From positions 1 through 44,817 of the forward strand of contig JABWBQ010000023.1 in assembly GCA_013360395.1 (NCBI GenBank): a stretch of 44,817 nucleotides of DNA, given 5' to 3'. A program made the translations under genes and the position numbers. Of the stretch, positions 8,524 to 20,940 are shown piece after piece. The DNA is from Flavobacteriales bacterium. GTDB taxonomy: Bacteria > Bacteroidota > Bacteroidia > Flavobacteriales_F > PHOS-HE28. Each line of letters opens with the position of its first letter. The first letter of the stretch is position 1. Below the pieces are notes generated by a model. It ran no database searches. It worked only from the letters and a program-made list of their open reading frames with translations, and was not told the DNA's origin.

Positions 8524-9897
8524 ATGAAGCACCGCACCATCATCGAGCCCTTCCGCATCAAGAGCGTGGAGCCGATCGGCCTGAGCACCGAGGCCGAGCG
8601 CACGCGATACTTGGCCGAGGCCCATTACAACCCCTTCCTGCTGCGCTCACGCGACGTGATCATCGACCTGATGACCGACAGCGGTACCAGCGCCATGAGC
8701 GCCCATCAGTGGGCCGGCATCATGGAGGGCGACGAGGCCTACGCCGGTTCGCGCAGTTGGGAACGCATGCAGGCCGAGGTGCAGGACCTCACCGGCATGG
8801 AGCACGTGCTGCCCACGCACCAGGGGCGTGCGGCGGAGCGCATCCTGTACGGCCATCTGGGCGGGCCGGGCAAGGTGTTCATCAGCAACACGCACTTCGA
8901 CACCACCCGGGCCAACATCGAGTACACCGGTGCGATCGCCATCGACATCCCCATCGCCGAAGGCCGCGATCCCGCGCACGAGCATCCCTTCAAAGGCAAC
9001 ATGGACGTGACCGCGCTGGAGGCATTGCTCCGGGAGAACAAGGGGAAGGTGGGTGCGGTGATCCTCACGGTCACCAACAACAGCGGCGGCGGGCAGCCTG
9101 TGAGCCTGGCCAACGCCGAAGCGGTGGGCCGCATCTGCCGGGGCCACGGCGTGCCGTTCCTGCTGGACTGCTGCCGCATCGCCGAGAACAGCTGGTTCAT
9201 CAAGGACCGCGAGGAGGGCATGGAGGGTGTGACCTACCGGGGCATCGCCCAGCGCATGTTCTCCCTGGCCGACGGTGCGGTGATGAGCGCCAAGAAGGAC
9301 GCGCTCGTCAACATGGGCGGTTTCCTCGCGCTGCGTGATGCCACGCTGGCCGAGGCCTGCATCAACCTGCTCATCATCACCGAGGGTTTCACCACCTATG
9401 GAGGTCTCAGCGGCCGCGACATGGAGGCCATCGCCATCGGTCTGCAGGAGGTCTTCGATCCGGACTACCTGGACTACCGGATCAAGAGCACCACCTTCGT
9501 GGGCCGCAAGCTGCACGAGCTGGGCGTGCCGCTCATGCGGCCCATCGGCGGCCATGCGGTGTACATCGATGCCAAGGCGCTGTATCCGCACATTCCGCCA
9601 CACGAATACCCCGGCCAGGCCTTGGTGTGCGAGCTCTACCGGCTGGCCGGCATCCGCAGCGTGGAGATCGGCTCGGTGATGTTCGGGACCTACCGGCCGG
9701 ACGGTACGCTGCAGCCGTCGGCCATGGAGCTGGTGCGGCTCGCCATTCCCCGTCGCGTGTACACCCAGAGCCACATGGAGTACGTGGCCGAGACTTTCGA
9801 GGAGGTGATGCGCGAGCGGTCGCGGACCAGGGGCTTCCGCATCACCAAGGAGCCTCGTTTCCTGCGGCACTTCACGGCCCACTTCGAGCCGCTCTGA
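8524..9897 (+). CDS. tnaA: Tryptophanase (tryptophan indole-lyase)
   Basis: This PLP enzyme cleaves tryptophan to indole, pyruvate and ammonia. The 457-residue protein has the PLP lysine in SAKKDALVNMGG and the family blocks LPTHQGRAAE, LLDCCRIAEN and TYGGLSGRDMEAIAIGL. Two positions separate it from the sister enzyme tyrosine phenol-lyase. The FDTT motif has the Asp of tryptophanases where the lyase has Thr, and IRSVEIGS has the Ile where the lyase has the phenol-binding Arg. The start ATG 8524 gives MKHRTIIEPFRIKSVEPI, the normal N-terminus. It is monocistronic, and no tryptophan permease lies beside it. Confidence 0.93.
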   Translation: MKHRTIIEPFRIKSVEPIGLSTEAERTRYLAEAHYNPFLLRSRDVIIDLMTDSGTSAMSAHQWAGIMEGDEAYAGSRSWERMQAEVQDLTGMEHVLPTHQGRAAERILYGHLGGPGKVFISNTHFDTTRANIEYTGAIAIDIPIAEGRDPAHEHPFKGNMDVTALEALLRENKGKVGAVILTVTNNSGGGQPVSLANAEAVGRICRGHGVPFLLDCCRIAENSWFIKDREEGMEGVTYRGIAQRMFSLADGAVMSAKKDALVNMGGFLALRDATLAEACINLLIITEGFTTYGGLSGRDMEAIAIGLQEVFDPDYLDYRIKSTTFVGRKLHELGVPLMRPIGGHAVYIDAKALYPHIPPHEYPGQALVCELYRLAGIRSVEIGSVMFGTYRPDGTLQPSAMELVRLAIPRRVYTQSHMEYVAETFEEVMRERSRTRGFRITKEPRFLRHFTAHFEPL

Positions 9898-9931: not shown

Positions 9932-10624
9932 TCAGCGCAGACGTTCCTCCAGGGCCTTGGGCCGCAGCAGCCGCACGGACTTGCCCACCAGTTGGATGAG
10001 GCCTTCCTGCTGAAGGCTTGAAAGGCTGCGCACCACCGACTCGTAGGTGGTGTCCGCCATGCTGGCGATGTCGCGGCGTGGCAGGGTGAAGGCCAGGCGG
10101 CGGCTGTCGGCGATGTCCATGCCGAAGGTGTCGCGGCACACCAGCAGCGTGCGCACCACGCGCTGTGCCACGTCCATGGTCCGCAGGTCGCGCAGGTGCT
10201 GGTCCAGCTGCCGCATCTCCGCGGCGAACTCCAGCAGGAAGTGGTAGCAGAAGCGGGGGTTCTCCTGCAGGGTCCGCAGGAAGAGCGCCATCGGGATGGC
10301 GTTCACGCGGGTGGGCACGAGGGCGAAGGCGCTGGCGGTGTAGGCGGGTTTGCGTCCCAGGGCGCGGTGGCCCAGCATCTCCCCGTCGCCCGCCAGGCGG
10401 ATGATGCGGCCCTGGCCGTTGCCGACGTCGGCCACCACCTTCACCCGGCCGTGGTCCACCATGAACATCCGGTCGGCCTGGTCGCCGCTCCGGAAGATGG
10501 CTTCACCCTTGGCGTAGATGCCCTGGATGTTGTGGTCGCGCAACCGGCGGCGCCACTCCAGGCTGCAGTGCAGACGGATCAGTTCGTCCAGTCGCTGATG
10601 CGAAGTGCTTCCGGCCTTCCCCAT
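9932..10624 (-). CDS. Crp/Fnr-family transcriptional regulator
   Basis: The 230-residue protein has an N-terminal cyclic-nucleotide-binding-type barrel (YAKGEAIFRSGDQADRMFMVDHGRVKVV), a dimerisation helix and a C-terminal winged helix with the recognition region TLPRRDIASMADTTYESVVRSLSSL. It lacks the four-cysteine arrangement of true FNR, so it is not an obvious Fe-S oxygen sensor. ATG 10624 is chosen because it starts five bases after TACTTTCG (10637-10630), close to the Bacteroidota -7 consensus; longer starts would cross that element. It converges with tnaA. The ligand is unknown. Confidence 0.9.
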   Translation of the reverse strand: MGKAGSTSHQRLDELIRLHCSLEWRRRLRDHNIQGIYAKGEAIFRSGDQADRMFMVDHGRVKVVADVGNGQGRIIRLAGDGEMLGHRALGRKPAYTASAFALVPTRVNAIPMALFLRTLQENPRFCYHFLLEFAAEMRQLDQHLRDLRTMDVAQRVVRTLLVCRDTFGMDIADSRRLAFTLPRRDIASMADTTYESVVRSLSSLQQEGLIQLVGKSVRLLRPKALEERLR

Positions 10625-10629
10625 GGCGG

Positions 10630-10637
10630 CGAAAGTA
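10630..10637 (-). promoter_or_regulatory. Putative -7 promoter element of the Crp-family gene
   Basis: TACTTTCG matches TAnnTTTG except for one base, with the ATG five bases downstream. The same near-consensus form precedes the Rrf2 gene. Confidence 0.4.
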
Positions 10638-10699
10638 AATGGACCGGCGCATCGACGGTCCCGTTCGCCACGTGGAAGCACGCAGCGCGTGCCCGCCGG

Positions 10700-11731
10700 T
10701 CAGAACGGGCTTCCCAACGCCGGGTCCGTAAGGAAGGTCTCGTCCGTGAGCGTGTTCAGGAAACTTACCAGGTTCGCTTTCTCCTGGGGGGTGAGGCCCA
10801 GGGTGAGGCTGGGGCCGGGCTTGGTCATGAGGGGGTCCAGGCTGGCCGAGTGCTGCACCCCGCTGTTGTAGAACTCCACCACCTCTTCCAGGGTCTGGAA
10901 ACGGCCATCGTGCATGTAGGGGGCCGTAAGGGCGATGTTGCGCAGGGTGGGGGTCTTGAACGCGCCCATGTCCATCGGGGCGCCGGTGATCGCATACCGC
11001 CCCACGTCGAAGCCGGTGAAGCTTCCGGCAAGGCCGATGTTGTGGAACCCGTTGTCGGTCATCAGCGGCAGGGGGTGGCAGTGGAAGCAGTCCCCGACCT
11101 CGGAGAGGAAGGTCATGGCGCCGTTCATCTCCTCGGGGGTGAGGATGATCTCCCCGCGCAAATGGCGGTCCAACCTGCTGTTGCTCGAGACCATGCGCCG
11201 GAACCATTGGGCAAGGGCCTTCACCACATGGTCGGTGGTGATGTGATCGGCGCCGAAGGCCTGCTGGAAGAGCAGCGGGTAATCGGGATGTGTGTTCAGT
11301 CCGGCGATGTCCACCTGGAAGAATTCCTCCACTTCGAACCGCATCACATCCTCCAGCGTGCCGCACACCTTGCCGTTCCACAGGAAGTTGGTGCTCCAGG
11401 CGAGGTTCACATGGGCCAGGACGTTCGTTCCCGAGGTGGGTGTGGTGAAGGACACGGGCTGGTGGTGACAGCTGGCGCAGGCGAAGCCCTGGAAGGGCCC
11501 GTTCTGCGAGAGGAGCGTGTCGTAGTACAGCCGGCGGCCGAGGGCGATGCCTTCCTGGGTCAGGGGATTGGACGCCGGGATGATCGGTGCCGGGAAGTTG
11601 GCGGGGAGGTCCAGGGAGTAGGGGGTGGTGTGCGTGCCGGGGGAGGGCTCCTCGGGCACATCGCGGCGGCAGGCCACGGTGCAAAGAAGCACCAGGGTCG
11701 CCGCCGGGATGGTGAGGGCGGAGGGTCTCAT
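10700..11731 (-). CDS. Di-haem cytochrome c peroxidase / MauG family, MbnH-like lipoprotein
   Basis: The 343-residue protein has a lipoprotein signal (LVLLCTVAC, lipid Cys 21) and two c-type haem sites, CASCH at 85-89 and CFHCH at 215-219. The family block GAFKTPTLRNIALTAPYMHDGRF supplies a distal Tyr/Met near the second haem. It is coupled by an ATGA overlap to an MbnP-like gene. In methanobactin and related operons the MauG-like MbnH oxidises a tryptophan of MbnP to kynurenine. The pairing here supports the same role rather than plain peroxide removal. The lipid anchor places it in the envelope. Confidence 0.88.
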   Translation of the reverse strand: MRPSALTIPAATLVLLCTVACRRDVPEEPSPGTHTTPYSLDLPANFPAPIIPASNPLTQEGIALGRRLYYDTLLSQNGPFQGFACASCHHQPVSFTTPTSGTNVLAHVNLAWSTNFLWNGKVCGTLEDVMRFEVEEFFQVDIAGLNTHPDYPLLFQQAFGADHITTDHVVKALAQWFRRMVSSNSRLDRHLRGEIILTPEEMNGAMTFLSEVGDCFHCHPLPLMTDNGFHNIGLAGSFTGFDVGRYAITGAPMDMGAFKTPTLRNIALTAPYMHDGRFQTLEEVVEFYNSGVQHSASLDPLMTKPGPSLTLGLTPQEKANLVSFLNTLTDETFLTDPALGSPF

Positions 11732-12501
11732 GGCTCCATGGTGGCCGTGAAGGCGTCGGCGCAGTTGTCGCGCAGCAGTCCCATGAGCATCATGCTGCCC
11801 ATCGAGTAGCTCCCGCTCACCAGGTCGTAGGTATGCGGGGTGCGGAACACCTCGTTCAGGTTGAACCGCAGCACCAGGGTCTGCGCGCTGCCGTCCAGCT
11901 GGAGGTCGGCGGTGGCGATGCAGGTGGGCAGGTTCTCATTGCGGCCCAGGTGCATGGCGTATCCCGTGGGGGTCGCACCGTTCAGGAAATGACCTTCGAA
12001 CTTCATGAAATGGTAACCGCCGCCCATCCCGTCGGGCCATGCCATGTTCACGTTCGCGATGGTGTTGGGCAGTGCCCCCGTGATGTTCAGGTCGGGCGTC
12101 AGTCCCAGCCGGAGTTCCACCCCCGTGTATCCACCGGGAGCGAGCGCGCCCAGGTCGAAGGTGGTCCCCTGCTCCGCGTTGATCAGGAATGCGCCGGGGA
12201 TCGCCGGTCCCACATCACCGGTGTCGGCCGTCAGCAGCTTGATGCCGCTGATGTAATACTCCAGATGGCTCACCGCGTAGGCATGCCCGGCTTCGTTGGC
12301 ATAGAGCACGGTGTCGAACAGCAGTGGGACACCATCGACATGGTGCTCCAGCCGCAGGGTGACGGTCGCCGCAGGTGCAGGCGGCCCAGGGTCCGGTGCG
12401 GGGTCGTCGTCCTTGGCGCAGCCGTGCAGGCCGACCGCAAGGACCATGACGGGCAGGAGGGCGGTCAGGGTGGGGCGGTCCGGCCGGGGATGGTCGTTCA
12501 T
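11728..12501 (-). CDS. MbnP-family copper-associated lipoprotein
   Basis: The 257-residue protein has a lipobox ending in C28 (AVGLHGC) and an Asp/Pro-rich tether. The MbnP-type domain has LYYANE-like LYANEAGHAYAVSHLEYYIS, LINAEQGT and AWPDGMGGGYHFMKFEG. It contains a single tryptophan, W155 in AWPDGMGGG, the natural candidate for conversion to kynurenine by the coupled di-haem enzyme. Cys194 and Cys247 could form a disulfide. ATG 12501 starts five bases after TCAATTTG. Family members bind copper after tryptophan modification; copper binding here is inferred. Confidence 0.85.
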   Translation of the reverse strand: MNDHPRPDRPTLTALLPVMVLAVGLHGCAKDDDPAPDPGPPAPAATVTLRLEHHVDGVPLLFDTVLYANEAGHAYAVSHLEYYISGIKLLTADTGDVGPAIPGAFLINAEQGTTFDLGALAPGGYTGVELRLGLTPDLNITGALPNTIANVNMAWPDGMGGGYHFMKFEGHFLNGATPTGYAMHLGRNENLPTCIATADLQLDGSAQTLVLRFNLNEVFRTPHTYDLVSGSYSMGSMMLMGLLRDNCADAFTATMEP

Positions 12502-12675
12502 GGATACAAATTGAACTGGATCCCCGTCCAATAGGTATGAGACACATCATGTAATTAGTTGATCCTGGTTCAGGAATAATGAGGTCCATGTTGGTCGAAC
12601 AGTTCGCGAACATGATGCGCGTCATATCCACGGAGGCGGCGATCCTTTCAAATTCGTCCACCACCGTTCCATCCC
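12502..12675. promoter_or_regulatory. Divergent control region between the mbnP/mbnH-like pair and the lysyl-oxidase-like operon
   Basis: Near the left edge lies the -7-like TCAATTTG (12514-12507, minus strand) for mbnP. In the middle is the perfect palindrome GTTCGCGAAC (12602-12611), followed by ATGA/TCAT arms. It may be an operator shared by both directions. No gene fits here. Confidence 0.35.
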
Positions 12676-14727
12676 ATGCTCCAACGTCTGCTCCTGCCGT
12701 TCGCCGCGCTGTTCCTCGGTCCGCTCGGGGCGGCCGCGCAATGCACCACCAGCAATGCCACCTCGTGCCAATGCCCGCCCGGGCAGGGGACGGATTGCGA
12801 CCTGCTGCCCGACATGACCACTTCGTGGTATGCCGCGCTCAACTACCTCAGCGGCCCGAACGAGGACCCCGGCCGCATCTACGTCACCAGTTCCACGCCG
12901 AACATCGGTTACGGCCCGTTGGAGGTGCGGGGCGTGGACCTCAATGGCTACCGTCGGTTCGTGTGCGGGGTGGACACCTTCGTGGTGTACGACCCCTCGG
13001 CGCAACAGCAGTTCGCCTGTCCCAACGGAGGCACGGCCAAGCAGCTCACCACGCAGCGCATCTTCCACAAGAACGGGCCGGTGATGACCTCCACGGAGCG
13101 GGTGATGCCGCAGGGCATGACCTATCACCCCACCCACGGGCACACGCACTTCGACCAATGGGGCATCTTCAGCCTGCGCATGCAGGAGACCGGGGTCACC
13201 GACCCGCGGCAGTGGCCCATCGTGGGCCAGGGGTACAAGCTTGGCTTCTGCCTGATGGACTACCACAGCTGCAATGCCGGCGCGGCGCTCCATCATTGCA
13301 AGGACAACAACACCACGTACAACGCGGGCACCACGCTCACCGGGCCGAACTTCCCGAACCTGGGTCTGGGCGGCTCCTACGGGTGCAGCATGACGCGCCA
13401 GGGCATCTCCTCGGGGTACACGGACGTGTACAGTGAATACCTCGACGGCATGTGGATCGACATCCCCAGCGGCGCCTGCAACGGGGCGTACTGGATCGTG
13501 ATGGAGTCGGACCCGCTGGACGTGGTGGAGGAGGCCGATGAGACGAACAACTGGACGGCCATTCCCTACACCCTCACCCAGCAAACGCCCACGGCCGCCG
13601 TGGCCGAGATCCACTGCGACCAGCAGGCCTTCGTGTGCCAGGGCGACCAGGTGGAGCTGTATGCATCGCCGGGCACGTCCTACCAATGGAGCACGGGTGC
13701 CACCACCAGCCGGATCATGGCGGGCCCCGGCACCTACACGGTCACCGTCACCGGTTATTGCGGCACCGCCACCTCGGCTCCCTTCACCGTCACGGCCCTG
13801 CCGCAGCCCGTGGCCCCCACCGCGGCCGGCGTGGTGATCTGCGAAGGGGAGCAGGCCGTGCTCACCGCCACCGGCCTCGATCCGCAATGGTTCGACCAGT
13901 TCGGCGACCCCCTGGGCAGCGGGACCTCCTACACCTCGCCACCCCTGTACACCAGCACCACTTACCAGGTGGCCGATCGCCTGTCCACCCAGGGAACGAC
14001 GCTCTACGGGGGCAAGCCGGACAACTCCGGGAACGGAGGGTATCATGCCGGTGGGCGCTCCCTCCGGTTCGACGCGCTGGCCTCCTTCCGGCTCGCTTCG
14101 GTGAAGGTCTACGCGGGCAGTGCGGCCATGCGGACCATTGAACTGGTGGACGGCATCGGCGTGCTGCGTGCGTCGCGCTCGGTGATGGTGCCCGCGGGTG
14201 GATCCCGGGTGGACCTCGATTGGGACATCCTGCCGGGCCACAATTATTCGATCAACGTGAGCGGCACCACCGACCTGTGGCGCAATACCAGCGGGGCGAG
14301 CTATCCCTATGCCATCGGCTCGGTGGCGAGCATCACCGGCTCGTCCGGCGGCTCCTCCGAGTATCCGTATTTCTACGACTGGGAGGTGGAAGTGGGCGGG
14401 GGCAGCTGCCTGAGCGCGATGACCACCGTGCCCGTCACCGTGGAGGTGTGCACCGGGGTCGACGAGCCCTTGTCCTTGCGCGGTTTCGAGGTGTACCCCA
14501 ACCCCAGCGACGGCCGGTTCGACCTGACGCTGCACCTGCTGCGTCCCTCGGTCGTTAGGACCGAGCTTATGGACCTGACCGGGCGGCGTGTGCATGCCGA
14601 ACAGTTCGACGCGGCGGCCGGCCAGGTGATGCGGGCCATGGACCTGGGCCATCTGCCCTCCGGTGTGTACGTGCTCTCGCTGGGCCTGGAGGGTCGCGTC
14701 TTCACGCGCCGCATCGCCATCCACTGA
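12676..14727 (+). CDS. Secreted lysyl-oxidase-like protein with T9SS type A sorting domain
   Basis: The 683-residue protein begins with a signal peptide (cut near AAA-QC, residue 21-22). Residues about 45-300 resemble the lysyl oxidase catalytic domain. The copper-binding stretch HPTHGHTHFDQW has H151, H154, H156 and H158. K188 in GYKLGFCLMD aligns with human LOX K320, and Y252 in TDVYSEYLDGMWID aligns with Y355. These are the two residues that form the lysine tyrosylquinone cofactor. PLDVVEEADETNN matches the LOX C-terminal part. Ig-like and beta-sandwich modules follow (300-600). The end (FEVYPNPSDGRFD ... PSGVYVLSL) is a type A sorting domain, placing the enzyme on or outside the cell surface. 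It heads a rightward operon of redox proteins. Confidence 0.85.
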   Translation: MLQRLLLPFAALFLGPLGAAAQCTTSNATSCQCPPGQGTDCDLLPDMTTSWYAALNYLSGPNEDPGRIYVTSSTPNIGYGPLEVRGVDLNGYRRFVCGVDTFVVYDPSAQQQFACPNGGTAKQLTTQRIFHKNGPVMTSTERVMPQGMTYHPTHGHTHFDQWGIFSLRMQETGVTDPRQWPIVGQGYKLGFCLMDYHSCNAGAALHHCKDNNTTYNAGTTLTGPNFPNLGLGGSYGCSMTRQGISSGYTDVYSEYLDGMWIDIPSGACNGAYWIVMESDPLDVVEEADETNNWTAIPYTLTQQTPTAAVAEIHCDQQAFVCQGDQVELYASPGTSYQWSTGATTSRIMAGPGTYTVTVTGYCGTATSAPFTVTALPQPVAPTAAGVVICEGEQAVLTATGLDPQWFDQFGDPLGSGTSYTSPPLYTSTTYQVADRLSTQGTTLYGGKPDNSGNGGYHAGGRSLRFDALASFRLASVKVYAGSAAMRTIELVDGIGVLRASRSVMVPAGGSRVDLDWDILPGHNYSINVSGTTDLWRNTSGASYPYAIGSVASITGSSGGSSEYPYFYDWEVEVGGGSCLSAMTTVPVTVEVCTGVDEPLSLRGFEVYPNPSDGRFDLTLHLLRPSVVRTELMDLTGRRVHAEQFDAAAGQVMRAMDLGHLPSGVYVLSLGLEGRVFTRRIAIH

Positions 14728-14737
14728 TCGGTCGCTC

Positions 14738-16690
14738 ATGGCCGGGGCCGGCAGGACCAACTACGCCAACTGGCGCGTCGCCACCCTGGTCGGGGTCCAC
14801 CTGCTGTTCGTCGCCCACTTCGTGCATTGGAAGCTCCGGGGCCGCACCCTGGCCCCGTTGGAGTTCAACGAAGTGCTCTACACCGTTCATCAGGGGATCG
14901 TCACCGCGGGCTTCCTGCTCATGGCCCTGGTGATGGTGGCCACCCTCGTGTTCGGTCGGTTCTTCTGCTCGTGGGGGTGCCACATCCTGGCGTTGCAGGA
15001 TGCCGCCGGATGGCTGCTCGACCGGCTGCGGATCAAGCGGCAGCCCATCCGCTCCCGCACGCTCATCTGGGTGCCAGTCGGCGTCATGTTCTACCTCTTC
15101 ATCTGGCCCCAGCTGCTGCAGGCCTGGCATGGCGACGCACCCCGGGCCATGGAGGTGGTGGCCGCCGGGGGCGCGCGATGGTCCTCCTTCACCACGGACG
15201 ATCTGTGGCGCAACCTGCCGCCGCCGGGAGTGGCCGTGCTCACCTTCTTCGTCTGCGGCTTCCTCATCGTGTACCTGCTGGGAAGCCGCGGCTTCTGCTT
15301 CCAGGCCTGTCCGTATGGCGCGCTCTTCGGGATCGCCGACCAGCTTGCGCCCGGCCGCATCGTGCTCACCAAGGATTGCAGCCAGTGCGGGCTCTGCACC
15401 AAGGCATGTTCGTCGGACATCCTGGTGCACCGCGAGCTCGCCGTGCACGGCATGGTCACCAATCCGCGTTGCCTGAAGGACCTGGATTGCGTCACGGCCT
15501 GCCCGGAGAACGCGGTGCGCTACGGCTTCCGCCTGCCGCCGCTCTTCCGCAAGGGGCACCCCATGGGCGCTTACGGGGGGCGGTTCAGCAACACGGTGGG
15601 CGAGGATGTCCTGCTGGCCGTGGCCTTCCTGGTGGCGATGCCGGTGTACCGCGGCCTCTACGATACGGTGCCGTTCCTGCTCGCTGTGGCCCTGTCCGTT
15701 TGCACGGCGTGGGCCCTGGTGATCGGTGTGCGGCTCCTGCGCAAGGGGGCCGTGCAATTCCGGGGTCTCACCCTGAAGATGGATGGCGCTTTGCGCCGCC
15801 CGGGCGTGGCCTTCGCTGCCGTCATCGCGGTGGTGGGTGCCTTCTTCGCGCACAGCGCCTTCGTGCAGTACCACACCCTGGTGGGCCGGTCGCTCCATGG
15901 CCGTGCGGCCGCGGGCGATCATGCGCCGGACCTGGTGCGGCGTGCGGTGGGCCACTACACCACGGCGTTGCAGGCGGGCCTGTTCTCCCCGGCGGACCGC
16001 CGTTTCGAGCTGGCCTCCCTGCACCGGCTGCAGGGCGATGTGCCCCGCGCATCCCTGCTGTTGGAGGGGATCCTCCAGGACGATCCCGGCCATGCGGAAG
16101 CCCGGTTCCGTCTCGGTGAGCTGAAAGCGGCCGCCGGCGACCGCGAGCAGGCCATGCGCCTTTGGGCCGAGAACCTGGAGCAGGGGGAGGACCGCTCGGG
16201 CACGCAGTCCAGGACGATGCTGGCCCGATCGGCGATGGCGCTGGCCGCTGGCCACCAGGCGGAGGGTGATGCCGAGGGTGCCCGCCAGGTCTGCATCAAG
16301 GGACTGGCCCGTGCACCGGGCGATGTGGACCTGCTCGTCGCAGCCGGGGGGCTGGCGCATCGCCTCGGCCGGATCGAAGAAGCCGTGCGGTATTTCGAAG
16401 AGGCGTTGCGCCACGGTGGCCCGGAGGACATGTTGCGCAACAACCTGGGAGCCCTCCATCTGCAACAGGGGCGGCCCGGGCTCGCGCTTCCGCACCTGGA
16501 GCGGCTCATCGCGCTCCGGCCCGACGACGGCCGCTTGCGCTACACCCTGGGTTTGCTGCACGCCCGCTCGGGACGCACCCGGCAGGCCGAGGAACAACTG
16601 GTGGTCGCCGCCCGGTTGAACCCCACCGACACAAGGGTGCAGCAGGCGCTGGCCTCCCTGCGAACCACCTCCGATCCCGATCGACCATGA
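14738..16690 (+). CDS. Membrane polyferredoxin (NapH/CcoG-like) fused to TPR repeats
   Basis: The 650-residue protein has about six transmembrane helices in its first 380 residues. Two Cys pairs next to membrane segments, C77/C81 in FFCSWGCHIL and C187/C191 in FCFQACPYG, are typical of NapH/CcoG/NosR-type electron-transfer proteins. C214-x2-C-x2-C-x3-C224 ligates a [4Fe-4S] cluster. A second set, C245, C251 and C255 before Pro, is incomplete for a standard motif. Residues about 395-640 are TPR repeats, an uncommon addition suggesting docking of a partner. It starts 10 bases after the lysyl-oxidase-like gene and overlaps the next cytochrome (ATGA), so it likely moves electrons for this operon. 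Confidence 0.88.
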   Translation: MAGAGRTNYANWRVATLVGVHLLFVAHFVHWKLRGRTLAPLEFNEVLYTVHQGIVTAGFLLMALVMVATLVFGRFFCSWGCHILALQDAAGWLLDRLRIKRQPIRSRTLIWVPVGVMFYLFIWPQLLQAWHGDAPRAMEVVAAGGARWSSFTTDDLWRNLPPPGVAVLTFFVCGFLIVYLLGSRGFCFQACPYGALFGIADQLAPGRIVLTKDCSQCGLCTKACSSDILVHRELAVHGMVTNPRCLKDLDCVTACPENAVRYGFRLPPLFRKGHPMGAYGGRFSNTVGEDVLLAVAFLVAMPVYRGLYDTVPFLLAVALSVCTAWALVIGVRLLRKGAVQFRGLTLKMDGALRRPGVAFAAVIAVVGAFFAHSAFVQYHTLVGRSLHGRAAAGDHAPDLVRRAVGHYTTALQAGLFSPADRRFELASLHRLQGDVPRASLLLEGILQDDPGHAEARFRLGELKAAAGDREQAMRLWAENLEQGEDRSGTQSRTMLARSAMALAAGHQAEGDAEGARQVCIKGLARAPGDVDLLVAAGGLAHRLGRIEEAVRYFEEALRHGGPEDMLRNNLGALHLQQGRPGLALPHLERLIALRPDDGRLRYTLGLLHARSGRTRQAEEQLVVAARLNPTDTRVQQALASLRTTSDPDRP

Positions 16691-17076
16691 TCCGCACCAT
16701 CCTTCTATTGGGCGCATTCGTCGTGCTCTTGTCCCTGGACCGCGCGGGAGAGCCATGGACGGCACCGCCGGAGGCCGACCGCATGAAGGACCCGATGGCC
16801 GGGGACCCCAAGGCGGCCGTACGCGGCGCCAAGGTCTTCCGGTCCCTGTGCTGGACCTGTCACGGTGTGGAAGGGCGCGGTGACGGGCCCAATGCCACCG
16901 TGCTCAAGGTGAAGCCGGCCGACCTGGGATCGGGCCCCGTGCAACAGCAGACCAACGGCGCCCTGTATTGGAAGATCACCCACGGTCGCGGGGAGATGGC
17001 CTCCTACGAGCAGGTGCTCAGCCGGGAGGACCGCTGGGCTTTGGCGCACTACATCCGCACCCTCGCACACCCATGA
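16687..17076 (+). CDS. Mono-haem c-type cytochrome
   Basis: The 129-residue protein has an N-terminal hydrophobic segment (ILLLGAFVVLLSL) acting as signal or anchor. A class I cytochrome c fold follows with CWTCHG, GRGDGPNA and a distal Met candidate in GEMASYEQVLS. It ends with the usual C-terminal helix DRWALAHYIRTL. It overlaps both neighbours by ATGA, so it is produced together with the polyferredoxin and the outer-membrane barrel. It is probably periplasmic and probably carries electrons between them. Confidence 0.9.
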   Translation: MIRTILLLGAFVVLLSLDRAGEPWTAPPEADRMKDPMAGDPKAAVRGAKVFRSLCWTCHGVEGRGDGPNATVLKVKPADLGSGPVQQQTNGALYWKITHGRGEMASYEQVLSREDRWALAHYIRTLAHP

Positions 17077-17987
17077 AAAGTACCGCCCGTCGGCTTGTCT
17101 TGTCCGCTGCCGCATTGCTGTGCGCCCGGGGTCTGTCGGCCCAGGAGGAGGCACGGCCCGAACCCGTCACCGGGACCTTCGCAGGCACCCAGGTGGTGAA
17201 CGCCCAGAGCGTGGAGGTGGTGCCGCGCAAGCGGTCCTTCGGATTCATGATCCAGCACCGTTTCGGCACGGTGGGCACCGATGAGCAGGTGTGGAAGCAG
17301 TTCGCCGGGCTGGACCTGCCGGCCAACATCCGTTTCTCCTTTCAGTATGCGCCGTTCCAGAACGCGCAGCTCGAGCTGGGCCGGTCCAAGAACGGCAAGG
17401 TGTGGGACCTCGGTGCCAAGCTGCGTGTGCTCCGGCAGACCGTGGAGGACGAGATGCCGGTCTCGCTCACGGTGCTGGCCAACGCGGCCCTGATGAGCGA
17501 TGACCATCCCGCCACGGGGGATCGCGACTTCTTCGCCGACGGCACCACCCCGTTCGCCTATCGGTTCGAGCACCGGCTATCGTACAGCGCGCAGCTCATC
17601 CTGGCACGGCGCTTCACCCCGTGGCTCTCGCTGCAGGTGGCGCCGGTGGCCGTGCACCGCAACCTGGTGGCGGTGGGGGAGCACAACTTCACCCTGGCCA
17701 CCGTGCTGTCCGGCCGGTTCAAGGTCAGCACCAAGGGGTCCGTCCTGGTGGAGGCCGCACCGATCGTCATGGGCCACCGGCCGGGCCATCGGCTCGAACC
17801 GCTGGCCCTCGCCTACGAGGTGGCCACCCAGGGGCACGTGTTCCAGATCGTGCTCTCCAGCGGGCAGGAGATCATCGAACAACGGGCCTACACCATGCCC
17901 ACGTCGCGCTACGACGAGGGCCAGTTCCACCTGGGCTTCAACATCGCCCGCACCCTGCTCGTGAAGCCCAAGGCCCCCAAGCACTGA
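17073..17987 (+). CDS. DUF5777-like outer-membrane beta-barrel protein
   Basis: The 304-residue protein has a signal peptide ending LSAQ. The rest is rich in amphipathic strands such as KRSFGFMIQHRFG, IRFSFQYAPFQNAQLELG and RFTPWLSLQVAPVAVH, consistent with a barrel. Length and the RSFGFMIQHRFG start resemble the DUF5777 family of Bacteroidota, which often sits beside c-type cytochromes. The start ATG 17073 overlaps the cytochrome stop. Its role is unknown; a porin-like or cytochrome-holding role at the outer membrane would fit the context. Confidence 0.72.
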   Translation: MKSTARRLVLSAAALLCARGLSAQEEARPEPVTGTFAGTQVVNAQSVEVVPRKRSFGFMIQHRFGTVGTDEQVWKQFAGLDLPANIRFSFQYAPFQNAQLELGRSKNGKVWDLGAKLRVLRQTVEDEMPVSLTVLANAALMSDDHPATGDRDFFADGTTPFAYRFEHRLSYSAQLILARRFTPWLSLQVAPVAVHRNLVAVGEHNFTLATVLSGRFKVSTKGSVLVEAAPIVMGHRPGHRLEPLALAYEVATQGHVFQIVLSSGQEIIEQRAYTMPTSRYDEGQFHLGFNIARTLLVKPKAPKH

Positions 17988-17990
17988 TCC

Positions 17991-18407
17991 ATGGACCGCT
18001 CCTCCTACGTCCTCGCGTTCGCGCTCCTGCTCTCCGCCTGCACCAAGGATGAGGGCCCGCTGTACATCCCCGCACCAAGACCGCCGGACGAGCCCATCGA
18101 TACGGCGTACTTCAGCGCCGAGGTGCTGCCCATCTTCATCGCGCATTGCTGGACCTGCCATCCACCGATGGGCGACATGGACCTCTCGGCCACCGAGGCT
18201 TATGGCAACCTGGTGAACGTGGAGAGCAGCGGCCATGCACCGGCCGTGCGCATCGTGCCGGGCGACCCCGATGCCAGCGTGCTCTGGAACAAGGTGAACT
18301 ACACCGAGGTGTACGGGCTGGGCATGCCGCCTGACGGGACGGCGCTGAGCAGCGAGGAGCTTGCCACCATCCGGGCCTGGATCGAGCAGGGCGCGCTCAA
18401 CAACTGA
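17991..18407 (+). CDS. Lipoprotein with c-type haem site
   Basis: The 138-residue protein has a lipobox (LLLSAC, lipid Cys near 17) and a single haem motif CWTCH inside YFSAEVLPIFIAHCWTCHP. This is the layout of the short cytochrome-like domains common in Bacteroidota and Planctomycetes. GMPPDGTALSSEELATIRAWIEQG forms the C-terminal part. It begins three bases after the barrel gene, closing the operon. A lipid anchor plus haem suggests an outer-membrane electron acceptor or donor next to the barrel. Confidence 0.87.
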   Translation: MDRSSYVLAFALLLSACTKDEGPLYIPAPRPPDEPIDTAYFSAEVLPIFIAHCWTCHPPMGDMDLSATEAYGNLVNVESSGHAPAVRIVPGDPDASVLWNKVNYTEVYGLGMPPDGTALSSEELATIRAWIEQGALNN

Positions 18408-18436: not shown

Positions 18437-20101
18437 TCACTGCACCAGCAAGCGTGCCGTGGCGCGTTGCCGGTCCGTGCTGAAGACCGCGGTGTAGGGG
18501 CCCGGGGGCAGGGACAGGTGCAGGGCGCCCCGGTCCGGCAGGGGGCCTTCGGCATGCACGGTACGCCCTGCGGCGTCGGTGATGCGCAGCGCCTCCGGCG
18601 CGAAGGGGCAGATGTAGTGCACCGCACCGGCCGTCGGCACCGGGAACAGCAACGCACGCGGGTCCTCCACCACCGCCAGGCCCGTGTTCGGGTCCACCAC
18701 GATGTATTGCAGCATCATCATGTTGTCCTCGTGCATCAGGTTGTGGCAGTGGTACATGAAGGGCCACCCGTCGGTGAGGTCGTCGAAGCGCATGATGATG
18801 CGGACGGTGGCACCGGCGTCCACCAGCACCACGTCCTTGGGGCCCTCTTCCCAGGGGTCGGGCGGGGCGCCGTTGCGGTCCAGCACAAAAAAGGAGCCGC
18901 CGTGCAGGTGCATGGGGTGCGCCATGTTGCTGTTGTTCACGATCTCCCACACCTCGGTGGTGCCCAGCAGCATCGTGTCGTTCACCACGTCCGGGTCGAA
19001 CATGAGCCCGTTGATGGTGAACATGCCCATGCCCACCATGCCCATGCCGGCCAGTTCCTTGGTGCGGGTCCGGATGGCGTCGGCCTCGTCCGGGGGATCG
19101 ACGGCCACCAGCGAGGCGGGGATCGCCGTCACCGGGTCGGCCGTGGGCGCGGTGACGCGGATGCGCAGCACGGGGAAGTCCATCCCGTTGAGCGCGCTGG
19201 ACTCCCAGATGGGGTTGTTGGCGCCGGGCACCGTGAGGGGCAGCTCGCTGCCGAAGCTCATCAAAAGCAGGCTGTCGCCCTCCATGCCGGTGAGGTCCAC
19301 CAGCACCTCGGCGCGCTCCCCGTTGCTCAACGGCAGTCGGTCGGTGGGCACGGGGGCGCTCAGCAGGCCGCCGTCGCCGGCGATCACGTGGAAGGTGCGG
19401 CCGTCCTCGAAGCCGAAGCGGTACACCCGGGCGTTGCTGCCGTTGAGCAGTCGCAGCCGCACCACCTGGGCCGGGCATTCCACGTACGCATGCGGTGTGC
19501 CGTTCACCAGCACCGAGTCGCCGTAGGGGCCGAGGACGAAGTTGCCGTTGGGCGCGAAGCGCCGGTCCTGGACCACCACCGGCAGGTCGTCCACGCCGTA
19601 GGTGCGGGGCAGCTCGAGCGCCGCTTCGGCACTGTCGCGCACCACGATGGCACCGGCCACGCCCATATGGGCCTGCTCGGCGGTGAGCCCGTCGGGGTGG
19701 GGGTGGTACCAAAAGGTGGCGGCCGGGTTGTTCACGGGGAACTCCACGAACCAGGTCTCGCCGGGCAGCACCTCGCGCGGAGGCCCGCCGTCCGCCCAGC
19801 CGGGTACCCGCATGCCATGCCAGTGCATGCTGGTGAGCTGGGCCAGCTGGTTGTGCACGCGGATGCGGGCCGTGTCGCCCTGCTGCAGCACCAAGGTGGG
19901 GCCCAGGTACGAGGCGCTCGCACCGTAGGTGTTGGTGCTCACCCCGGGGTAGAAGTTGACGATGTGCTCGTCCACCACCAGGTCGAAGGTGTCCTGCGCC
20001 AGCGCGGGCGGGATGGCCATGGGGTTCATCACCTGGGCTGCGGCAGGGACGGTCACCAGGCCGGCGAGGGCCCAGCAGGGGAGGCTGAAGCGTGCGTTCA
20101 T
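18437..20101 (-). CDS. Secreted multicopper oxidase with short T9SS-like C-terminus
   Basis: The 554-residue protein has a signal peptide ending PAAAQ and three cupredoxin domains with all four copper-ligand blocks: SMHWHG (H93, H95), WYHPHPDG (H133, H135), HPMHLHG, and HCHNLMHEDNMM with the type 1 Cys-His pair and axial Met. Such enzymes oxidise cuprous ions, metals or phenolics. A Met-rich patch (GMGMVGMGMF) is typical of copper-tolerance oxidases. After the oxidase domain comes a sorting-domain-like tail beginning FPVPTAGAVHY in place of the usual YPNP, ending LRITDAAGRTV ... GPYTAVFSTD. The ATG 20101 gives the clean signal peptide. It converges with the cytochrome operon and probably belongs to it functionally. 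Confidence 0.9.
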   Translation of the reverse strand: MNARFSLPCWALAGLVTVPAAAQVMNPMAIPPALAQDTFDLVVDEHIVNFYPGVSTNTYGASASYLGPTLVLQQGDTARIRVHNQLAQLTSMHWHGMRVPGWADGGPPREVLPGETWFVEFPVNNPAATFWYHPHPDGLTAEQAHMGVAGAIVVRDSAEAALELPRTYGVDDLPVVVQDRRFAPNGNFVLGPYGDSVLVNGTPHAYVECPAQVVRLRLLNGSNARVYRFGFEDGRTFHVIAGDGGLLSAPVPTDRLPLSNGERAEVLVDLTGMEGDSLLLMSFGSELPLTVPGANNPIWESSALNGMDFPVLRIRVTAPTADPVTAIPASLVAVDPPDEADAIRTRTKELAGMGMVGMGMFTINGLMFDPDVVNDTMLLGTTEVWEIVNNSNMAHPMHLHGGSFFVLDRNGAPPDPWEEGPKDVVLVDAGATVRIIMRFDDLTDGWPFMYHCHNLMHEDNMMMLQYIVVDPNTGLAVVEDPRALLFPVPTAGAVHYICPFAPEALRITDAAGRTVHAEGPLPDRGALHLSLPPGPYTAVFSTDRQRATARLLVQ

Positions 20102-20157
20102 GGATGCTCGGATGCACGAAGTACGCGCGCGGCGGGCTCTCCGCCGCATGACGGGCA

Positions 20158-20940
20158 TCATCCGGCGGGCGGGTCGTGCCACCACCGCCAGGCCGCCTCG
20201 GCCTGGGCACGCAGCATCACCAGGCCGTTCTCCACGGTGGCGCCCGCCATGCGACCGCGTTGCATGAAGAGGGTGTCCTCGGGGTTGTACACCAGGTCGA
20301 TCAGATGGTGCCGGTCCGTGAGGGCCTCGTAGGGCAGGGTGGGGGCTTCATCCACCCGGGGCCACATGCCCAGCGGTGTGGTGTTGACGATCAGCCGGCA
20401 CACGCCCAGCACGGTGCGGTCCACCTGCTCCCAGAGCAGGTCGCCCCGTTCGCGGCTGCGGCTCACCACACGGAACCTTACCCCCAGCTCGCGCAGCACG
20501 TAGGCCACGGCCCGGCTGGCCCCGCCGCTGCCCAGCACCAGGGCGCGCGGTCGCACTGCCCCGCCTTGTGCGGACAGGTCCCGCAGGTGCGGGTCCACGA
20601 GGGCGCGGAAACCGTCGATGTCCGTGTTATGCCCCAGCCATCGCCCCTCCTGGATCCGGATGCTGTTCACCGCCCCCACGGCCGCCGCCTCGGCGCTCAG
20701 CCCGTGCAGGAGCGGGACCACCGCCTGTTTGTAGGGGATGGTGACGTTGAGCCCGCGCAGGTCCGGGTGTGCGGCGATCAGTGCGGGCAGGTCCTCCACG
20801 CGCTCCAGCTCGAACAGCGTATAACCGGCCCGGGTCAGGCCCTCCCGCGCGAAGATCGGCGCGAAGAGCTCCGGGGAGCGGGAGTGGCCGAGCGACCGGC
20901 CGATCAGACCATACCGTTCCACGCGTTCCTCAACGCTCAA
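20158..20940 (-). CDS. aroE: Shikimate dehydrogenase
   Basis: AroE reduces 3-dehydroshikimate to shikimate with NADPH in aromatic amino-acid synthesis. The 260-residue protein has the substrate motifs GRSLGHSRSPE, NVTIPYKQ with the catalytic lysine, GAVNSI and NTDIDGF with the catalytic Asp. The cofactor loop is VLGSGGASRAVAYVL. The start overlaps the dedA stop by ATGA (20937-20940), so the two are co-translated. Length is at the short end of normal. Confidence 0.95.
   Translation of the reverse strand: MSVEERVERYGLIGRSLGHSRSPELFAPIFAREGLTRAGYTLFELERVEDLPALIAAHPDLRGLNVTIPYKQAVVPLLHGLSAEAAAVGAVNSIRIQEGRWLGHNTDIDGFRALVDPHLRDLSAQGGAVRPRALVLGSGGASRAVAYVLRELGVRFRVVSRSRERGDLLWEQVDRTVLGVCRLIVNTTPLGMWPRVDEAPTLPYEALTDRHHLIDLVYNPEDTLFMQRGRMAGATVENGLVMLRAQAEAAWRWWHDPPAG

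What the first reader, a model, noticed from the sequence alone, without database searches (positions are those of the whole stretch)
12676..14727. Bacterial surface lysyl-oxidase-like enzyme that keeps both LTQ-forming residues
H151/H154/H156/H158 form a copper-site cluster, and K188 and Y252 align with human LOX K320 and Y355, which build the lysine tyrosylquinone cofactor. A T9SS sorting domain puts it at the cell surface. A quinone-cofactor amine oxidase outside the cell, next to a MauG-like/MbnP pair, is unexpected. It could crosslink surface proteins or attack external amines.
Basis: partly seen in the sequence, partly recalled or inferred. Interest (0 to 1): 0.75.

Follow-up and report, generated by a model that had tools for sequence, protein, structure and literature searches.

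The report
Surface lysyl oxidase wired to cytochromes
A Bacteroidota genome encodes a cell-surface relative of the animal enzyme that crosslinks collagen, in one operon with electron-transfer genes that, wherever they were found with readable surroundings, sit beside such a gene, which hints that bacteria may run this enzyme family on an electron chain, perhaps even without its copper.

Summary
ORF 12676-14727 (+) encodes a 683-aa secreted protein: lysyl-oxidase (LOX) domain, Ig_7, T9SS sorting tail. H151/H154/H156/H158, K188 and Y252 align with human LOXL2's His motif, K653 and Y689; the predicted fold matches LOXL2 (Z 13.9). Bacterial LOX with both LTQ residues is already published. New here: (1) the gene starts a tight operon: LOX, NapH-like 4Fe-4S/TPR membrane protein, cytochrome c, DUF5777 barrel, lipoprotein cytochrome. 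In the Bacteroidia genomes searched the NapH-TPR gene adjoins a LOX-like gene in 21 of 22 places (the last is cut by a contig end). (2) K188 and Y252 are invariant in 78 of 78 related domains, but the copper histidines are lost in 16, all in NapH-linked loci, by three to six separate losses, under purifying selection. The MauG/MbnP pair is a neighbour found only in the window's genus. Most likely this is a surface amine-oxidising LOX whose electrons pass to the operon's cytochromes; LTQ, substrate and redox direction are untested.

The parts
12676..14727 (+). LOX-like surface protein, 683 aa: signal peptide, LOX domain, Ig_7, T9SS sorting tail
12739..13593 (+). LOX domain as modelled (residues 22-306)
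   Evidence: AF2 pLDDT 90.4, best fold LOXL2 5ze3
13126..13149 (+). Four-His copper-site motif H151-P-T-H154-G-H156-T-H158
   Evidence: aligned with LOXL2 His motif in a weak stretch; HHHH in 61 of 78 related domains
13237..13239 (+). K188, LTQ-lysine equivalent (LOXL2 K653)
   Evidence: K in 78 of 78 related domains
13429..13431 (+). Y252, LTQ-tyrosine equivalent (LOXL2 Y689)
   Evidence: Y in 78 of 78 related domains
13807..13977 (+). Ig_7 domain (residues 378-434)
   Evidence: PF19081 E 5.3e-7
14491..14718 (+). T9SS type A sorting domain (residues 606-681)
   Evidence: PF18962 E 6.5e-7, TIGR04183 33.8 bits over cut-off 23
14738..16690 (+). NapH/MauN-like membrane protein with 4Fe-4S motifs and C-terminal TPR repeats; ATG 10 nt after the LOX stop
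   Evidence: beside a LOX-like gene in 21 of 22 places
16687..17076 (+). Monoheme cytochrome c (CxxCH at residue 55), start overlaps previous stop by 4 nt
   Evidence: PF13442 E 2e-12
17073..17987 (+). DUF5777 outer-membrane beta-barrel, start overlaps previous stop by 4 nt
   Evidence: PF19089 E 2.5e-64; model of about 12 strands, porin-like
17991..18407 (+). PSCyt1-like lipoprotein cytochrome (lipobox-like N-terminus, CxxCH at residue 53)
   Evidence: PF07635 21.7 bits, just under its cut-off 22
11728..12531 (-). MbnP-family lipoprotein, divergent from LOX (genus-specific neighbour)
   Evidence: PF20243 E 2.6e-24
10700..11731 (-). MbnH/MauG-like di-heme protein, two CxxCH (genus-specific neighbour)
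   Evidence: PF03150 E 5.4e-27; TIGR04039 207.8 bits, under its cut-off 362.85
9932..10681 (-). Crp/Fnr-family regulator (neighbour)

Best explanation
The protein is a T9SS-exported, cell-surface LOX-family enzyme that works as one end of a trans-envelope redox path encoded by its own operon. Shown: LOX fold, copper-site and LTQ residues, sorting tail, operon, linkage. Inferred: copper bound by H151-H158 builds LTQ from K188 and Y252 as in animal LOX; LTQ oxidises external primary amines or lysyl side chains to aldehydes; the reduced quinone is re-oxidised at least partly through the lipoprotein cytochrome, DUF5777 barrel and periplasmic cytochrome c, linked to the quinone pool by the NapH-TPR protein, so that it acts as an amine dehydrogenase more than as a plain O2-using oxidase. 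In sister operons without copper ligands the same protein must work through K, D and Y (or as a redox scaffold) by a copper-free route.
For: Fold and residues. Operon with a 10-nt gap, two 4-nt overlaps and a 3-nt gap. NapH-TPR found in 17 of 396 Bacteroidia genomes in one draw and five more genomes in further searches; 21 of these 22 genes lie beside a LOX-like gene, the other ends at a contig edge. All five operon genes present in 23 of 27 fetched linked loci (in one of them the last gene is cut by the contig end, seen) and in the window. Copper ligands lost in 16 of 29 linked domains and in 0 of 49 others (one of these, L162, keeps three of four His); K and Y kept in 78 of 78. dN/dS 0.13 and 0.05 in two copper-less pairs. 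In several sister operons a T9SS-tailed choice-of-anchor V protein with a CxxCH or C-x3-CH motif sits directly upstream of LOX. DUF5777 stands near a PSCyt1-like or CxxCH ORF in 23 of the 30 best-scoring loci elsewhere.
Against: No activity, LTQ, copper or electron transfer was measured. NapH-type proteins normally pass electrons from quinol outward (recalled), the opposite of what amine oxidation needs. In LOXL2, H626Q, H628Q and H630Q make no LTQ (PMC9694262 Table 3), so copper-less relatives should lack LTQ by the known route, which weakens a shared LTQ mechanism. K and Y could be kept for structure: 13 other columns invariant in the four-His rows are also invariant in the copper-less rows. 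Four linked loci lack some or all of the cytochrome/barrel genes in the DNA fetched (L130 in part; L135, L136, L194). The concentration of losses in linked loci is only modest once the tree is taken into account.
Confidence: 0.35

Rival explanations
1. Ordinary surface amine oxidase: copper and LTQ, O2 as electron acceptor, H2O2 and aldehyde as products, used for matrix crosslinking or amine scavenging; the operon's redox genes serve copper delivery, peroxide removal or something separate.
For: All catalytic residues present in the window copy; a refolded archaeal LOX is active on many amines (PMC6452851); a di-heme MbnH/MauG-like protein and a CueO-like multicopper oxidase lie near.
Against: The linkage to NapH-TPR (21 of 22) has no role in this reading, and 16 linked domains have lost the copper site while keeping NapH, most of them with the whole operon.
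Confidence: 0.27
2. Outward electron path: quinol to NapH-TPR, cytochrome c, barrel and lipoprotein cytochrome, to an external acceptor, with the LOX domain as a surface scaffold or terminal reductase whose copper is optional.
For: NapH-like partner, porin-like barrel with cytochromes, T9SS-tailed CxxCH protein in sister operons, repeated loss of copper ligands with purifying selection.
Against: K, D and Y are invariant in the 61 four-His and the 16 copper-less rows, odd for a mere scaffold; only monoheme cytochromes in the operon, no multiheme conduit; the conduit role of DUF5777 is inference.
Confidence: 0.25
3. Copper handling: the LOX-like protein is a surface copper binder, NapH-TPR a cupric reductase (like CcoG, recalled), with MbnP/MbnH and a CueO-like oxidase as further parts.
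For: MbnP, MbnH-like and CueO-like genes beside the window operon.
Against: Among linked loci MbnP/MbnH were seen only in the window's genus; copper-less LOX members keep the operon; four His plus K/Y is an enzyme site in animals.
Confidence: 0.1

Closest known systems
Lysyl oxidase family (PF01186; human LOX/LOXL2, bacterial and archaeal LOX)
   Same: Fold, cysteine-rich catalytic domain, four-His motif, LTQ lysine and tyrosine, secretion
   Different: T9SS tail and Ig_7 domain, distant sequence (PF01186 matches residues 233-302 only), operon with NapH-TPR/cytochromes/DUF5777, sister members without copper ligands; PMC4448552 says the first His is absent from bacterial sequences, but it is present here
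Methylamine dehydrogenase (mau) cluster
   Same: Quinone-cofactor amine oxidation with a MauN/NapH-like ferredoxin protein and a MauG-like di-heme protein nearby (cluster content recalled)
   Different: LOX fold, not MauA/MauB; the MauG-like gene here is nearest MbnH and genus-specific; cytochrome coupling not shown
NapH/MauN membrane ferredoxins (TIGR02163)
   Same: Membrane helices and 4Fe-4S motifs, significant match
   Different: Score 51.9 against cut-off 213.05; C-terminal TPR repeats; tied to LOX-like genes
MbnP/MbnH pair
   Same: MbnP over its cut-off and an MbnH-type di-heme protein side by side
   Different: No methanobactin genes were sought; in this operon family seen only in the window's genus

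Membership tests
Lysyl oxidase (PF01186) | Profile match over curated cut-off | tested here: met
   38.6 bits over 20.4, residues 233-302 only
Lysyl oxidase (PF01186) | LOX catalytic-domain fold | tested here: met
   Model matches 5ze3, Z 13.9, 162 residues, rmsd 2.9 A
Lysyl oxidase (PF01186) | Copper-binding His motif (H-x2-H-x-H-x-H) | tested here: met
   H151/154/156/158; aligned to the LOXL2 motif in a stretch not significant alone; metal binding itself not testable; motif lost in 16 operon-linked relatives
Lysyl oxidase (PF01186) | LTQ-forming Lys and Tyr | tested here: met
   K188 and Y252 by alignment, invariant in 78 of 78
Lysyl oxidase (PF01186) | LTQ formed and amine oxidase activity | not testable with these tools
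   Needs purified protein
T9SS type A cargo | C-terminal sorting domain and signal peptide | tested here: met
   TIGR04183 33.8 bits over 23; hydrophobic N-terminus, residues 5-23
T9SS type A cargo | T9SS machinery in the genome | not tested
   No search made for PorV, SprA and others
NapH/MauN family (TIGR02163) | Score over curated cut-off | tested here: not met
   51.9 bits, cut-off 213.05; a relative, not a member
MbnP (PF20243) | Score over curated cut-off | tested here: met
   86.6 bits over 27
MbnH (TIGR04039) | Score over curated cut-off | tested here: not met
   207.8 bits, cut-off 362.85; still the best of three models
Methylamine dehydrogenase cluster | MauA/MauB subunits with TTQ | not tested
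   Not searched

The most novel reading that the evidence does not exclude
A branch of the lysyl oxidase family has been re-plumbed from copper and O2 to an electron chain: its Lys-Tyr cofactor is made and turned over by a NapH-TPR/cytochrome/DUF5777 path, so that copper became dispensable and was lost several times while K, D and Y stayed fixed - a copper-free quinone cofactor and an extracellular amine dehydrogenase of a new kind.
Probability: 0.13. Interest if true: 0.9.

Novelty: new variant of a known kind. Interest (0 to 1): 0.62.

Why it matters
The role of prokaryotic LOX enzymes is unknown in the two papers seen here (PMC4448552, PMC6452851). A conserved operon with electron-transfer genes gives a genetic handle on one, and the natural copper-less members allow a clean test of whether the conserved Lys-Tyr pair can work, or a quinone cofactor can form, without copper. 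It also points to a widespread DUF5777-cytochrome outer-membrane module for which the open-access library holds no paper by that name.

Tried and rejected
K-Y distance in the model: the structure tool returns no coordinates; also not decisive. Pfam alone was not enough for the His region. phmmer of the full window protein against the PDB found only a T9SS tail; the profile was needed. MauG/MbnP as the core partner was rejected after comparing loci; some linked loci (L010, L135, L195) end at the LOX gene and cannot be judged on this. Copper homeostasis as the core role was downgraded because copper-less members keep the operon. Chance explanation for the link: with three LOX genes per 3.5 Mb assumed, the chance of one within reach is under 1% per locus. 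A Fisher test of copper loss against linkage gives p 2e-6 (28 unlinked rows) or 4e-9 (all 49 others) but ignores relatedness. On the tree the linked branches hold 36% of the length, so three or four losses all falling there by chance has probability 0.05 or 0.02: modest. That reconstruction reads the four changes as three losses and one regain of all four His (L131 and L133); if a regain is excluded, my reading of the tree gives four to six losses. Its root is a midpoint, its search the quick kind without bootstrap. Rows dropped or moved: partial domains (e.g. G039, G286, G393) were left out of the 78; L162 (three core His kept, very long branch) is not counted as a loss and was pruned; L201 2300-4399 was labelled unlinked by my 3-kb rule and moved by hand to linked (its NapH gene lies 3.2 kb away behind a second LOX); 21 rows, all four-His, have context too short to judge. 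The 78 come from loci fetched here, not from a random sample. The 30 DUF5777 loci are the best-scoring ones, not random. A longer stretch of L133 was translated out of frame and ignored. Paper searches: no LOX-NapH link (one hit, an ER redox review by title), no DUF5777 paper, no choice-of-anchor V paper, no bacterial LOX with T9SS among the 15 listed of 363, no biochemical study of a bacterial LOX among the 10 titles, no copper-independent LTQ among the 12 listed of 52; open-access PMC papers only. (extracellular electron transfer in Bacteroidota) was seen as a listing only and not used.

Full report
What is there. ORF 12676-14727 (+) codes for 683 aa with a hydrophobic N-terminus, a LOX domain, an Ig_7 domain and a T9SS type A sorting tail. 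The numbering of H151, H154, H156, H158, K188 and Y252 is right. Pfam covers only residues 233-302. A profile of 34 sequences finds human LOXL2 (5ze3) as best PDB match, E 4e-4; the four His and K188 pair with the LOXL2 His motif and its LTQ lysine in a separate stretch that is not significant alone, and Y252 with the LTQ tyrosine in the significant one (the LOXL2 numbers come from PMC9694262 passages; matching numbers to letters is my reading of the two). The AlphaFold2 model (pLDDT 90.4) has LOXL2 as best structure by Foldseek and VIA-align (Z 13.9 against 7.4 for the next). Residues 1-306 hold eleven cysteines; six cysteines are invariant in the 34-row alignment.

What is already known. LOX domains in Bacteroidetes and other bacteria, with conserved K and Y, were reported in 2015 (PMC4448552; abstract and passages seen). 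The same paper says the first of the four His is absent from bacterial sequences; here all four are present in 61 of 78 related domains, while the two other LOX genes of the window's own genome have C-H-x-H-x-H with D or N at the first place (L001, L002, read by eye). A refolded archaeal LOX is active on many amines, though its native role is called cryptic (PMC6452851; passages seen).

The operon. The LOX stop at 14727 is followed by an ATG at 14738 of a NapH/MauN-like membrane protein with 4Fe-4S motifs and TPR repeats, then a monoheme cytochrome c (16687), the DUF5777 barrel (17073) and a lipoprotein cytochrome (17991), with gaps of 10 and 3 nt and two 4-nt overlaps. Of 14 related loci from named records, 12 showed the LOX-NapH neighbourhood; L011 is a short contig that ends inside LOX and L017 is a distant, unlinked LOX. 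To avoid choosing by LOX, I searched for the NapH-TPR protein itself: 17 of 396 Bacteroidia genomes, 17 of 394 in a second draw that is mostly the same, 3 of 7, 3 of 6, 2 of 24, 1 of 8 and 6 of 42 genomes of chosen orders or families. That gives 22 distinct places. In 21 a LOX-like gene is adjacent, by coordinates against or by reading the fetched DNA; in three of these (G049, G093, G431) the two genes converge. The last (G134) ends at the contig edge. LOX-like matches themselves are commoner: 95 of 396 genomes have one at E 0.001, many weak, and many strong ones are unlinked. Of 27 fetched linked loci, 22 hold all five genes and one more (L126) holds the fifth cut by the contig end; L130 lacks cytochrome c and DUF5777, and L135, L136 and L194 show only LOX and NapH of the five in the DNA fetched.

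Neighbours that are not core. MbnP and the MbnH/MauG-like gene are divergent from LOX in 9 of 9 testable loci of the window's genus (window, L004-L009, L013, L014) and were seen in none of the other linked loci in the DNA fetched. Outside the genus a T9SS-tailed choice-of-anchor V protein (NF041895 over cut-off in the four scanned), with a CxxCH or C-x3-CH motif in the five sequences I read (L127, L129, L131, L201 twice), lies directly upstream of LOX in L126-L129, L131, L133 and L201, with weaker matches in L132, L203, L015 and L016.

The copper site comes and goes, the Lys-Tyr pair does not. Among 78 distinct domains (the window's included) K188 and Y252 are invariant. All four His are present in 61; L162 keeps the last three; 16 have lost the site, and the listing shows no H-x-H left there, each single His position being kept in at most 4 of the 16. 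All 16 are in linked loci (29 linked: 13 with four His, 16 without); the 28 unlinked rows and 21 rows of unjudged context show no loss apart from the one His of L162 (with L201 2300-4399 moved by hand). The region is gapped in some rows, so single positions are less sure than the loss of the motif. A tree built without the His columns needs four changes of this trait. One loss, L010+L014, is firmly nested among four-His relatives of the window's genus; another change separates the sister groups L131+L133 (four His) and L127-L129/L132/L201 (lost), both on starred branches, but its direction is not fixed. Parsimony on the drawn root reads three losses and one regain; without regain, four to six losses. 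Of 24 columns invariant in the 61 four-His rows, 15 of the 20 non-His ones are still invariant in the 16, K188, D250 and Y252 among them. Two copper-less pairs have dN/dS 0.13 and 0.05 (Nei-Gojobori; dS is 2.1 in the second, near saturation), so these are constrained genes. In LOXL2, changing any of the three core His abolishes LTQ (PMC9694262 Table 3). So the copper-less proteins either do not make LTQ or make it otherwise.

How it may work. The window copy has everything needed for copper-made LTQ and should oxidise amines. The electron-transfer partners, and the loss of copper seen only in their company, suggest coupling to the respiratory chain instead of, or besides, O2. I hold this at 0.35. 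A plain O2-using oxidase, an outward electron path with LOX as scaffold or reductase, and copper handling are the rivals. The direction of electron flow is the main gap: NapH relatives usually run outward (recalled). The DUF5777 model is a porin-like barrel of about 12 strands, and DUF5777 genes stand near a PSCyt1-like or CxxCH ORF in 23 of the 30 best-scoring loci elsewhere (19 by sequence match, 4 by motif only, 7 without), which fits, but does not show, an electron conduit.

Verdict. Observation confirmed, interpretation partly supported. The protein meets the LOX sequence and fold tests that could be run; catalysis is untested. The operon-linked, partly copper-less variant is new as far as the open-access searches show.

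Noticed in passing
window 18437-20185 (-): CueO/laccase-like multicopper oxidase next to the operon; also near it in L004, L006 (two copies), L007 and L009, not found in the other loci.
   Followed up: partly
window 8524-9897 (+): Tryptophanase/tyrosine phenol-lyase-like gene upstream; also near the operon in L004, L005, L006, L013, L014 and L015 and beside LOX in L011, as two copies in four of these.
   Followed up: no
L164-L193: DUF5777 barrels occur in 338 of 396 Bacteroidia genomes and in 23 of the 30 best-scoring loci stand near a PSCyt1-like or CxxCH ORF; two His (H39, H232 in alignment A2) are invariant in 55 of 55 aligned sequences.
   Followed up: partly
G000:C32:23866-24354 and G000:C43:6704-7165 (L001, L002): Two further, more canonical LOX genes in the same genome, with strong PF01186 matches and long ORFs.
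   Followed up: no
L201:1350-7518: Tandem choice-of-anchor V plus LOX, twice in a row, both LOX copies without the copper His.
   Followed up: partly
L058-L076: A second LOX subfamily in the window's genus (50-62% identical to the window domain), all 19 fetched with four His, K and Y; neighbourhood not judged.
   Followed up: no
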